DNA of 64,000 bases from Petrosia ficiformis (Eukaryota; Porifera; Demospongiae; Haplosclerida; Petrosiidae): NCBI GenBank assembly GCA_947044365.1, contig OX345653.1, positions 1,275,001 to 1,339,000 of the forward strand. Reading direction: 5' to 3'. Positions within the stretch are counted from its first letter, which is position 1, and every line of letters starts with the position of its first letter. A model generated the notes under the pieces. It was not told where the DNA came from. It made no database searches and saw only the letters and a program-made list of their open reading frames with translations. The position numbers and the translations under genes were made by a program. Shown in pieces: positions 54,144 to 60,100 of this stretch.

Positions 54144-57100
54144 TTATTTTTTTATTCTAAGAATAGTTCTTGGCATTGGAACAGGTTTCTTCTTAGCGAA
54201 TTTGAGTTGATCTTGTGGAATTCCTCTACTTATTAAGCAAGCATCAGTCAGAGATAGACCTGCTCTGTTTAAAGGATGAGCCCTGCATGACAAGAAAGAA
54301 TGGAAATTGAGAATTGCAGTATAGTTTGGGAAGCCACTATAAAGTGGTCTTCAAGTGAATAGTATCAAAACCACAACCCATTCTCAGTAACAAAACACCA
54401 TTGCCAAGAATGTATGATATGTGTTACATGAATAACTGTACTCTATAATTCATGAAGTATTTTTAGCGAATCATAATGTAAATGTATATGTGATGATATA
54501 CAGTACACATCAGAAGGAGAAGCACTGCAAGAGATTCAGTACTAATGCCACTATGGTGCATTATCCATAAACATTAAAGAAAGATGCACAAATTAAGTGG
54601 AGGAGGGGGGATGTAAGATTTTAGAGGAGCTCCTACAGAAATAAACACTGTGTACGCATGCAAGAGGTATAAATTCAGTTTCATTAAATTAAATGCAGAG
54701 TGTTATTTCATTGTAAATTAGCTGAAGGCTGAACATTCCTCAGTGGCTGTGGTGCCCCCCCCTTAAATTTTGGTGAGGCCAGTAGTTTGCAATTGGTACA
54801 CATGATAGTTATTATTGCTGTTGGTGCCTCCTCATTTAAAAACATCATCCTATGCCTATGTTAAATCCTACAGTACTATATATATACATACAACCCAATC
54901 CCTAATTGTATATACATGTATTAATGCATGTATGTAATTTAAATTATTTGTTTTACATCTTTCCTACAACTTCATAATTATCACATACAACATACTTTCA
55001 AACAGGACATTCTTGAAATTATTTACTATTTTAGTCAAGCATTTCTTACATATATACAAACAGCAATGTAAAGTCTGTTCACATTCTCGATGACCTCAAA
55101 ATTAGGGTGTGATGACTTCATATGGTATATAATTTAATGTCATAAGGTTATTACACGATTATACTGTAACTCAATAATGAAGCTATGGATTGAAATTTGA
55201 CATACACAAAAAAGAACGGAACAGATAATATGAAAATTGTACAGGTAAAATGATTGTTGGTCATTCCAAACTAAGTTATGAACTTTCTGAAGCCAAGGTG
55301 AACATTTTGATGAATTTTTTAACCATTGATTATTATTTATTGGATTAATGGAATTGAATGTGAATGACCTTTAGTTATAGTTTAGAAAAGGAAAAGGAGA
55401 GAACTAATGCTTACTTGAAATAAGTGGCCAGATTTTTCAAATTAGAGAAAGTCTGATGATATCCCTTATCCCCAATTAAGTTCAATCCACTATTTCCATT
55501 AGAAGAGTATTCGGGAACTATGTCACATGACCACATTCGTCGTCCATGACCTTGAGACACAGCTAGTTTAAAAATGAAATTCCCTGATGTGGAGTACCCG
55601 GTATATATCAGATACGAGCCTTGTGGTTGTCCACTTAACATTGTCTGTTAACAATAATTAAAAAGAATGTGATTATTGTTGGAAATTCACTACCCAAACC
55701 CATACCCATAATCTAGGCCAATACTATAGTATAAAGCTGTTGAGAAAGTAGGTCCTAGAGGTGATTGTCACAAGGACACTATTATGTGGTGAAATTGATG
55801 TTATAGTGAAGTTTTTGTAGCCTTTGTATTAATGATCACATTACAACGTTTAGTGGTGAATCCATTGTTGAGACTAAAGTGAAATGGTGATTACCCCCCA
55901 CCTTTCCTCATCAATCCACCACTGGTTATAAACAAAGCTTTTGGTGTAACTTAATTATTGTATAATTATTCAAGCTACCATCTTCTCAGTCACTATCCTG
56001 GTCAGCTCTGGTCAGGACTAACCACTTCTCAGATAAATTAACTACCCCCTAACCACCTCTCATATATACTAGAGGGGTTGTGTAAACAGCACTAAATGCA
56101 AGATAGAATCTGCCACCACTCTACACATTCTGGTCAGAACACTGTTCAGTAGCCTTGTTTCTGGCTACTAGAACGGGGTAATAAAAATTGTGGTTTTGTA
56201 TTCATGTTAATAAACACATTGATAAGATGAGTCACATTGATATGTGGGAAGTTTACTGTAGTCATGTATTTAGTAATATGTTAAATTTACCCTCATCACA
56301 CCTGTGAATGTTGGTTAACTACAAAACCGGTTTATGTCTACTCAACATCTAAATAGTATTATGTTCCCTTACTTCTGCATTGTGGTCACTTATACCAGGA
56401 AGATATCCTGGTATTTCCATACTACCAAGAGGATCAATATCTCCAACAACTGGTTTGTTATACTTGAATTCATGAGTTGCAGTAACATCTCCATTGAAAC
56501 TAGTATTGTTAAGACAAAATAATAAGTACTCGTAAAAACATATTATTGATTAATTTGATACACAAACAAATGTATATACATGCACTATCATTATAGTAGG
56601 TTATGTGGTAGTTAATAAATACCTTTCTTTGCTCTTGTTTTTCTTCAATAATCTCTCAAATCGTTTCTGTGGAGTGAATTGAAATGATATGAATTATATA
56701 AAAGAATGGAATAGAGAAACAGAATCACATCCATTAGCTGCAATCAGTCAAGTGCATTCCAAGGTACTAGGGCATAGGTAGATGAGCAAGTATAGATAGA
56801 TACAAGTACAAATATTTTAAGTTTACTTTTAATTGCGTGTGCTAATTTTAGCGATTTTAGTGATTAACATAATAATTGCTTAAATTAGTGCAGGGTAAAA
56901 AATATAATATTTCGTGATCATTTTTTAGGCATATTAAACCTGTCTCAGAGATTCACTAAAATTAATGCATGCTAAATTTCAGCATTTAAAAATTGCTAAA
57001 TTTAGTGGATGCATTAAGTAGGTTTAAGGTAACAGACTGATGATTATATATAATATATACCTTCTTGTGTTTGTCCAGCGAGGGAGAGGAAGACCATTGG

Positions 57101-60100
57101 ATATCTGGAGACTCATGTGATGGCCTGGAGATACGATGCAACAAAGGAGTATCAATAGTAAGCCCTTCTCCATTAGAGAACAAATCTTCATTAGAAGAAG
57201 ATAACAGATTTGGAACACTTCCTGAAAGACCAGTTAAGAGATTCTTACGAGTTCCAGTGGTTCTATCCCTAACACCTACAGTACGAGTACTGAAAATGGT
57301 CTTACTGAAATCTGAGTTAGATCTGGATTGCTGTTTCGAGCGTGACTTTGACAAGCTACTTTCCAGAGAGCTTTTACGATCACCTGATATAGTAGCATAC
57401 TCGTGATATCCTTCTATTCTTGTATTGTCAGAATTGACATATATTATATCAGAGGAAGTTGTATCGTGTCTTTCTCCTGTTGGATATACAAATGGATAAA
57501 CATACTCATTTTCATCATCGGAACTCAAATCTGGTTTGGAAACAGGTTGTTTATGAACATCATTTGTCTGGGTTTTGCCTGTTTGAATCATATAGGTCTT
57601 TACTGATAAAGGTTTTACGAGAGTACCTGCTGTAGGAACCTGCTGCTTTTCAGTAACTGAATCTTTCCCTTTTTTAAATGTCAGACGGTACTCTCCTTCA
57701 CTTACAGGACTCTGTTCCGTTAATGATTGCTTAATAGTTTGAGGTTTTTGTTTTCTCAATGTAGAGTCTCCAGGTAATATCTTAACACCTCCAACTGGTC
57801 GTTTGTTTTTAGTTACTGAATTAATCTTCTGCTGAGGAGGAACTGGAAGAGAATTTTTACGTATATTTGAGTCATAGTCCATTTCAGTATATTCATATTC
57901 TTCATCGTTGCTATAGTTACAAGGGTCTTCATTCTTATATCCATTTAAATGTAGTTCAGTTCCTCTACTTCTTATAAGTGTGGATTTTTGTACGTCTGGT
58001 CGAACATATGTGATTGGACTGGGAGAAACAGAACGAGCCCTCCTATCCAGATTTGTCATTAAATTGTTTGTTTTGAGTAAAGATCTAGGTTTACGAGCTG
58101 GAGGTAGAAGAGGTTCTGGTTTTGTTTTGGGTTTAGGAAGTAAAGCCCGAGGTTTGTCTTTAGTTGGAGACATCTTATCAAAAGAAGTAGGTGGAACCTT
58201 ATTTTCATCCTTGCTTGTTCGTCTAAGAGGACGAGGTTGTTGTGTTTTCTTTTCGTCAAACACCAGAGAAGTGGGTGGAGTATCAATACTTTGAGGAGGG
58301 GAATTGGGTGGATTTTTATTCTCATCTTTGCTTATTTTCCTGTTCTGTTTTAAAATTCTTTCTTTATCCATTGGTCCATCAACCAACACAGCTACTGCAC
58401 CGATAGCCTTTGGTCTAAACTTCTTGTCATCCTCCTTCTCCTGTGGTTTAGTGGGTATAGCAGTCCTTGCTTGATTTGGGTGACCAAATCTCTCAATAGC
58501 TAACATAATATCTGTTTTATTAAGTTCAACAACACGACTGAAGGAATCTGAATATTATAGAATTTAATATTGTTAAATACTTTGTAGGATTAATACAAAT
58601 CGAGGGAAAGCCTTGGTATCCCCAGATAATTTAATAAGGTAATAATGCAATAACAGCACAGGCAACAATGCATATCTGTGAGTTCCTGTACGTAACTGAA
58701 GGAATCTGAATATTACAGAATTTAATATTGTTAAATACTATGTAGGGATTAATACAAATTGAGGGGAAGCCTTGCTATCCCCAGATAATTTAATAAGGCA
58801 GTGATGCAATAACAGTACAGGCAACAATGCAAATCTGTGAGTTCCTGTATGTAACTTTCACTGCTGTAAATGGTATTGAAACCATAAGCCACTTGTCGTT
58901 TTTAATTTTGATTATATTTGCAATATTTTCTCAGGGGGGCAGTGTTTTTCTTTCAAGGCCTTTAGGGGGGAGATTTGCCACCAAAAAATCATAAATTCCC
59001 CCCTAAAATTTGTTTTTAGAGCATTCATTAATCTTTCTACTGACATATGTAACCCCAATAAGGCAGCTGAGAGAGCACATGTATCTAATTCAATAGGTAT
59101 ATGATGTGAAGTAATAGTTATTTCAGTTTTACCTTCACTTGTTTGAGAAATTTGTTTCAGCATTTCCTTTAAAACAACTTTCTGTTTTTTTGCAGCTTCT
59201 CTCAAAGGACCATACCTATACAAAGAATACACAATATACACATTTATAACATCATATATACAGTGGTGTGGAAACAGCCGGTCATACAGGACATTGTCTG
59301 ATAAATCTAGTGAATATTGAAACTAAACTATATACAAAATATATGGGGAGCAGGACAAGAGTGGCGAAAATAGATCTAAATCTCTGGTAGCTGGGTTTAG
59401 ACGTAAAACTAATACATTAAATGTGCTGTGGAAACATAATTTTCAATTTTGTGGATAAAGCATGTTAAAATTAATAATAGTTTTATTAACCAAGCATTTT
59501 AGTGCGAAAATATTTTCCACTCAATTGAAATACAGTGGAACCCCTCTATTGCGGACAGCATTGGGATAAGTTTCCTGATTACACGGGTGTCCTCATTTCA
59601 GAGGTGAATTTATATCATAAAGCACAGTTTGGGACATTGGTAAATGTCCTTAATACAGGAGTGTCCTCATTTCAGGGTGTTCTCAATAAAGGTGTTTCAC
59701 TGTAATGTGATGCAACTCACTTTCTTCTAGCAATGTATCCCCGATATATCTTCTGTATTAGTGTTGCTTTTCTATCCATGTCTAATAAATGTATGTTGAG
59801 TTTCTCTTCATGATAGTAACGTAGAAACACCTGTGAAAGTGTGTATGTATAATATTATTATATAATAATATGTATAAATTACTATATTGGGAAATATCGC
59901 AAGTTAGGTACAAAGTCTAAACAAATTGAAAACTAACGGTATATAATGAAAGATTTTTCCGGTATCTCTATAAAGTTTAAATGCTCACTGCTGTGCAGGA
60001 ACAAGATACCCCACTTATATACTGTTCATGCTAGCATCTGGAATGTGCCACCACAGTTATTGAGCACAGTTTGGTACAGTTCCACGATAATTGTGAACAG

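What the first reader, a model, noticed from the sequence alone, without database searches (positions are those of the whole stretch)
54144..58547. Myosin motor joined to a C-terminal SH2-like domain that lacks the FLVR arginine
Exons with consistent phase connect an unambiguous myosin motor and IQ neck to a long tail ending in an SH2-like fold (NAETMLSGQPQGSYLIY). The arginine that contacts phosphotyrosine is Tyr. No familiar vertebrate myosin class has an SH2 domain. The domain could bind unphosphorylated ligands or act as a structural cap.
Basis: partly seen in the sequence, partly recalled or inferred. Interest (0 to 1): 0.75.

Follow-up and report, generated by a model that had tools for sequence, protein, structure and literature searches.

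The report
Sponge myosin with disarmed SH2 tail
A sponge actin motor carries a tail domain built like the ones that read phosphorylated tyrosine, but three residues that usually grip the phosphate are gone, in this animal and in the reef sponge Amphimedon, so the tail probably grips its partners without waiting for a phosphate signal.

Summary
Sixteen phase-consistent exons (63563-54144, minus strand) join a myosin motor, one IQ motif and a long linker to a C-terminal SH2-like domain with Tyr in place of the FLVR Arg. Amphimedon queenslandica has the same order and the same Tyr. The domain is 52% identical between the two, while the linker as a whole is no more alike than shuffled sequence. 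Two further pTyr contacts are lost too (alphaA2 Asp/Glu, betaD4 Met/Val). The 22 other SH2-annotated myosins listed all keep the FLVR Arg (10 carry a species name, 12 do not).

The claim that no vertebrate myosin class has an SH2 domain is wrong: class XXVIII is described with IQ, short coiled coil and SH2, and holozoan 'myosin III-like' SH2 myosins are published. What I did not find in print is that this branch disarmed the domain, which Pfam misses in both species. The motor tree puts the gene beside sponge SH2 myosins with the Arg intact, so loss is the likely direction. Best reading: a folded, phosphotyrosine-independent docking module on an otherwise intact actin motor. Partner and function are untested. 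New variant of a known kind.

The parts
63411..63563 (-). motor exon (begins ETVDKLYSPSK...); earlier motor exons lie beyond the window edge
   Evidence: upstream exons in L031
62918..63039 (-). motor exon with switch II (GILDIFGFENF; motif name recalled)
62738..62866 (-). motor exon
62567..62680 (-). motor exon
62349..62515 (-). motor exon
62131..62280 (-). motor exon (basic stretch, then HFIR)
61193..61261 (-). motor exon
60464..60578 (-). motor exon
60333..60413 (-). motor exon
59721..59830 (-). end of motor and neck exon with the single IQ motif (its end reaches into the next exon)
59133..59215 (-). post-IQ exon
   Evidence: collinear with Amphimedon P0001
57061..58547 (-). long exon: post-neck segment (similar to P0001) and long linker
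57880..57891 (-). YTEM in the linker, a YxxM motif after an acidic run; a possible (not shown) phosphorylation / PI3K-docking site
   Evidence: not enriched in the window's linker (1 seen, 0.17 expected, p 0.16)
56623..56666 (-). basic exon before the SH2-like domain
56373..56499 (-). exon with the start of the SH2-like domain (helix alphaA); alphaA2 Arg replaced by Asp (GAC, 56385-56387)
55415..55644 (-). core SH2-like exon (betaB to alphaB); FLVR Arg betaB5 replaced by Tyr (55603-55605), betaD4 His by Met (55534-55536)
   Evidence: matched only itself in the genome
54144..54282 (-). last exon: end of SH2-like domain, PVPMPR motif, basic C-terminus, stop codon

Best explanation
This is a demosponge member of the SH2-tailed branch of myosin III-like motors (class XXVIII-like layout: motor, IQ, linker, SH2, no N-terminal kinase found). 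In this line the SH2 domain lost three phosphate contacts that its relatives keep (alphaA2 Arg to Asp/Glu, betaB5 Arg to Tyr, betaD4 His to Met/Val) but kept its fold and stayed under selection. Most likely it serves as a constitutive, phosphotyrosine-independent docking or tail-folding module, so that cargo attachment of the actin motor no longer waits for tyrosine phosphorylation. Shown: gene structure, shared replacement in two species, conservation of the domain, place of the motor in the tree. Inferred: that the animal is a demosponge, fold retention (profile and a homologue-guided model), loss of pTyr binding (from the residues). Not tested: partner, cellular site, regulation.
Against: Pfam SH2 stays below cut-off for both species (E 0.2 and 0.012 on the tail pieces), and PDB sequence searches give nothing significant (best E 0.34 and 0.041). 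With only the two demosponge rows AlphaFold gives pLDDT 44.3 and no Foldseek match at E <= 0.001; the best hit is not an SH2, though 10 of the 50 rows shown are SH2 domains at E 0.57 or worse. The good model used 10 true SH2 domains in its alignment and is guided by them. Only two species show the loss. All 15 SH2-bearing and query rows form one side of a branch, but unsupported (48/79.6). Twelve of the 22 comparison proteins carry no species name, so a demosponge among them cannot be excluded. No ligand, expression or RNA data.
Confidence: 0.6

Rival explanations
1. Intramolecular cap: the pseudo-SH2 folds back on motor, neck or linker and holds the myosin in an off state; release is by calmodulin at the IQ or by linker phosphorylation.
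For: Pocket residues lost while the domain is conserved; a basic exon and a long linker precede the domain. SH2 domains that help regulate their own protein are known, e.g. ZAP-70 (PMC7530234, passages).
Against: No contact surface or complex model was tested; no direct evidence.
Confidence: 0.18
2. The domain still reads a phosphate or an acidic side chain by a non-canonical pocket, as p120RasGAP C-SH2, the SPT6 C-SH2 back pocket or JAK-family SH2 domains do.
For: Such modes are published (PMC7530234, passages); betaD5 is Trp in both demosponges and the loop after betaB keeps Thr and Ser.
Against: No basic residue remains at alphaA2, betaB5, betaD4 or betaD6 in either species (betaD6 is basic in only 2 of the 20 others, so that place is no loss).
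Confidence: 0.12
3. The domain is decaying and has no function.
For: Below-threshold SH2 score; loss of hallmark residues.
Against: 52% identity between two species whose linkers as a whole are alike only at the shuffled level; same replacement Tyr in both; intact frame and splice sites.
Confidence: 0.05
4. The C-terminus is not an SH2 homologue but another small alpha/beta fold, or the exons belong to another gene.
For: Two-row model has low confidence and no significant match; no significant sequence hit in Pfam or PDB.
Against: Profile comparison far above 400 decoys; 51 of 53 sub-threshold PDB profile hits are SH2-bearing proteins (many are the same protein, SHP2); Amphimedon has the same order in one protein; the neighbours in the motor tree have an SH2 at the same end.
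Confidence: 0.05

Closest known systems
Class XXVIII myosins (Odronitz & Kollmar 2007, PMC2375034)
   Same: Motor, one IQ, C-terminal SH2; the named vertebrate SH2 myosins have the motor and SH2 of that description.
   Different: The aligned vertebrate rows keep Arg at alphaA2 and betaB5 and His at betaD4; here these are gone. A short coiled coil is part of the published description and was not tested. The motor tree does not firmly join the two; a joint clade is not rejected (p-AU 0.0625).
Holozoan myosin III-like SH2 myosins of choanoflagellates and filastereans (Sebe-Pedros et al. 2014, PMC3942036)
   Same: Same broad clade; that paper places one Amphimedon sequence in the III-like group.
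   Different: The passages read name SH2 domains for choanoflagellates and filastereans, not for Amphimedon; the demosponge domain lies under Pfam's cut-off.
Other sponge SH2 myosins: P0003 (Oopsacas minuta) and its unnamed near relatives P0002, P0004-P0007, P0009, P0010; P0008 and P0012 (unnamed; taken as Sycon from their record prefix)
   Same: P0002, P0003, P0009 and P0008 are the nearest SH2 myosins by motor (95/82); same layout.
   Different: FLVR Arg kept in each.
SH2 domains without the FLVR Arg: RIN2 and TYK2 (His), SH2D5 (Trp) (PMC7530234)
   Same: SH2 fold with betaB5 replaced; JAK-family SH2 bind without needing pTyr (passages).
   Different: Tyr at betaB5, carried by a myosin motor; not the same proteins.
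Myosin XVI / NYAP3 (PMC7464383)
   Same: III-related myosin with YxxM motifs in its tail (passages).
   Different: No SH2 is mentioned in its domain layout; the window's YxxM is a single weak motif.

Membership tests
Myosin superfamily | Myosin head with P-loop, switch I and switch II, plus IQ neck | tested here: met
   Myosin_head E 5.7e-104, IQ E 8e-5; GESGAGKTES and NDNSSRFGK in the upstream exons, DIFGFE at 62918-63039; motif names recalled
Class III myosin (sensu stricto) | N-terminal protein kinase domain | tested here: not met
   First motor exon has a Met after an in-frame stop and no kinase; Amphimedon P0001 has no kinase domain in Pfam; MYO3+query clade disfavoured, p-AU 0.026. A far-upstream 5' exon cannot be excluded without RNA.
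Class XXVIII / III-like SH2 myosin | C-terminal SH2 domain | tested here: inconclusive
   Homologous by profile and guided model, but below the Pfam cut-off
Class XXVIII / III-like SH2 myosin | Motor groups with SH2-tailed myosins | tested here: met
   Sponge SH2 clade 95/82; all 15 SH2+query rows on one side of a branch, though unsupported 48/79.6. With vertebrate class XXVIII alone: not shown, not rejected (p-AU 0.0625).
Class XXVIII myosin | Short coiled coil between IQ and SH2 | not tested
   No coiled-coil predictor run
Phosphotyrosine-binding SH2 domain | FLVR Arg (betaB5) | tested here: not met
   Tyr in window and Amphimedon; Arg in 22 of 22 other SH2-annotated myosins listed
Phosphotyrosine-binding SH2 domain | Supporting contacts alphaA2, betaD4, betaD6 | tested here: not met
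   alphaA2 Asp/Glu, betaD4 Met/Val, betaD6 Ser; betaD6 is also non-basic in 18 of the 20 others
Phosphotyrosine-binding SH2 domain | Binds pTyr peptides | not testable with these tools
   needs a binding assay
SH2 fold | alphaA, betaB-betaC-betaD sheet, alphaB order | tested here: met
Myosin XVI (NYAP3) | N-terminal ankyrin repeats and NYAP motif | not tested
   No MYO16 sequence was in the tree; Pfam listed no ankyrin repeats in Amphimedon P0001

The most novel reading that the evidence does not exclude
In demosponges an ancient phosphotyrosine-reading cargo myosin was turned around: its SH2 reader was disarmed into a constitutive cargo or self-binding module, while its linker became a tyrosine-phosphorylated platform (YxYTxM, YVN) read by other SH2 proteins such as PI3K p85, much as MYO16/NYAP3 works. 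It would be a reader-to-substrate switch on an actin motor.
Probability: 0.15. Interest if true: 0.65.

Novelty: new variant of a known kind. Interest (0 to 1): 0.42.

Why it matters
SH2-tailed myosins tie the actin motor repertoire to tyrosine-kinase signalling in animals and their single-celled relatives. A sponge lineage that kept the motor and the domain but removed the phosphate contacts its relatives keep gives a natural test of what the domain does besides reading phosphotyrosine. It also shows that domain scans can undercount SH2 domains: Pfam's cut-off misses this one in Amphimedon, a much-used early-animal genome.

Tried and rejected
Class III membership was rejected: no kinase domain found, and the tree disfavours it. 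The FLVR change as a lone substitution was rejected: two further contacts are changed. A second, canonical SH2 myosin or an alternative canonical SH2 exon near the gene was not found. This is not proof of absence: the exon-wise scan scored 65 of 184 first-look myosin candidates, and measured distances from 26 places that I picked by eye out of 95 matches as one per gene; on two contigs an SH2 match lies on the same strand 96 kb and 126 kb from a myosin place.

Tail motif enrichment: in the window YxxM 1 (expected 0.17, p 0.16), YxN 3 (p 0.044), acidic-Y 8 (p 0.021), out of six motif types in five proteins, uncorrected; Amphimedon YxxM 2 (p 0.013). The aligned YxYTxM lies in a linker whose overall identity is at the shuffled level, so it is a hint only. 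p85-type iSH2 matches stayed under the family cut-off, and two prokaryote controls also rang under it.

Searches that led nowhere: tail-region search of the protein database, 371 candidates, none at E <= 1; it also missed the Amphimedon orthologue, so its silence is weak. Two-sequence tail profile, 385 candidates, one hit, apparently the window's own last exon read on from its intron. So no third sequence with the Tyr was found. Of 234 proteins the best 120 were listed; the tree used 40 of them, chosen by hand, plus the window. NCBIfam gave nothing for four proteins.
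Full report
What is there. On the minus strand the window holds the 3' part of a myosin gene. Sixteen exons from 63563 to 54144, all internal borders GT...AG, give a single open frame of 1105 residues; the two other frames hold many stops. Pfam finds the myosin head (E 5.7e-104) and one IQ motif (E 8e-5); SH2 reaches only E 0.2 on the tail piece, under its cut-off. The window is bases 1275001-1339000 of contig C18 of an unnamed 191-Mb assembly in 29 contigs. The 5' motor exons lie beyond the window edge in L031, with GESGAGKTES and NDNSSRFGK intact; the first of them has a methionine after an in-frame stop, with no kinase domain on it. That the animal is a demosponge is my inference from the nearest protein (Amphimedon, 58% over 497 aa).

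Is the tail part of the same gene? Amphimedon P0001 is one protein with the same order: motor, neck, linker, then a C-terminal domain 52% identical to the window's. The linkers as a whole are alike at 25.7%, no better than shuffled linkers (mean 24.8, max 30.2 of 50), although the last 80 or so residues before the domain do align. So the terminal domain looks held by selection, and the exon joins follow the orthologue. RNA evidence is lacking.

What changed. Of the 120 proteins listed, 22 carry PF00017. In one search I aligned 20 of them; the other two were missed by my search pattern but read FLIR in their printed tails. alphaA2 is Arg in 20 of 20, betaB5 Arg in 20 of 20 (22 of 22 with the two), betaD4 His in 19 and Asn in 1. 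The window has Asp, Tyr, Met; Amphimedon has Glu, Tyr, Val. betaD6 is Ser in both, but it is basic in only 2 of the 20, so that place is no loss. Ten of the 22 bear a species name (Oopsacas, Erpetoichthys, Pleurodeles, Xenopus, three Callorhinchus, two Acipenser, Salpingoeca rosetta); for the other twelve, my labels (hexactinellid, Sycon, choanoflagellate) are inferred from similarity and record prefixes. Several are near-copies, so they are fewer lineages than rows. A review states that up to half of the binding energy is lost on mutating the FLVR Arg, and that in humans only RIN2, TYK2 and SH2D5 lack it (PMC7530234, passages).

Where it sits. In a tree of 41 motors (40 hand-picked from 120 listed, plus the window; 420 of 771 columns; the window's motor is partial) the window and Amphimedon join at 100/100 and sit beside four sponge SH2 myosins at 95/82. 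Holding them with kinase-bearing MYO3 is disfavoured (p-AU 0.026), with MH2-tailed myosins likewise (0.029), with vertebrate SH2 myosins not rejected (0.0625). The 15 SH2-bearing plus query rows form one side of a branch in the best tree, without support (48/79.6). Because the neighbours keep the Arg, loss on this line is the simpler history; the root is not inferred by the method.

No spare found. The core exon matches only itself in the genome. The genome has 74 exon-wise SH2 matches, 69 over the cut-off, so phosphotyrosine reading is not absent from the animal; the window's own domain is not among them. None lies within 20 kb of 26 myosin places that I picked from 95 matches; the nearest is 21 kb off on the other strand. 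Sebe-Pedros et al. count a single Amphimedon sequence in the III-like group (PMC3942036, passages).

What is known. Class XXVIII myosins were described in 2007 with IQ, short coiled coil and SH2, from Nematostella, Xenopus, chicken and some fishes, and seven Monosiga myosins have SH2 domains (PMC2375034, passages). Class 28 was later reported from Capsaspora (PMC5583752, passages). The architecture is therefore not new. I found no paper on a disarmed SH2 in a sponge myosin in searches, all in one open-licence library, of which I saw listings and the passages cited here.

How it probably works. The motor has its catalytic motifs. The tail domain, conserved and probably folded but without the phosphate contacts of its relatives, most likely binds a partner or its own protein without phosphorylation. 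Rivals are a self-inhibiting cap, a displaced phosphate pocket, decay, or a different fold. The linker carries a YTEM motif that pairs with YTIM of Amphimedon in a global alignment, which recalls the YxxM motifs of MYO16/NYAP3 (PMC7464383, passages); its enrichment is weak and the surrounding alignment is at the shuffled level, so it stays a hint.

Verdict. The claim of an architecture unknown in vertebrates is refuted. New variant of a known kind, moderate interest.

Noticed in passing
58537-58856: A 159-bp tandem duplication (92% match) spans the acceptor and first bases of the long tail exon, so the intron carries a second copy of that splice acceptor just upstream.
   Followed up: no
44882-45526, minus strand: ORF with a Rap/Ran-GAP dimerization domain (E 5.6e-07), part of a neighbouring gene on the same strand.
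   Followed up: partly
21774-23426, plus strand: Two ORFs with CUB domains (E 1.3e-25 and 8.3e-16), perhaps one secreted or membrane protein gene.
   Followed up: partly
P0001 (Amphimedon queenslandica): UniRef names it 'non-specific serine/threonine protein kinase', but Pfam finds no kinase domain in it; the name looks carried over from class III myosins.
   Followed up: yes
P0043 (unnamed) and P0050 (Salpingoeca rosetta): Two SH2-like copies in each tail, both with the FLVR Arg; the second copy looks divergent.
   Followed up: no
G000 contig C1, 48.775/48.807 Mb and 53.9-54.8 Mb: Equal-scoring pairs and a cluster of myosin-head matches, suggesting recent duplication of other myosin genes in this genome.
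   Followed up: no
window, e.g. 7545-8512, 26409-26859, 33143-34697, 37451-38119, 44235-44647: Dense tandem arrays of many periods (24 rows at score 250 or more), including long ATAC runs.
   Followed up: no
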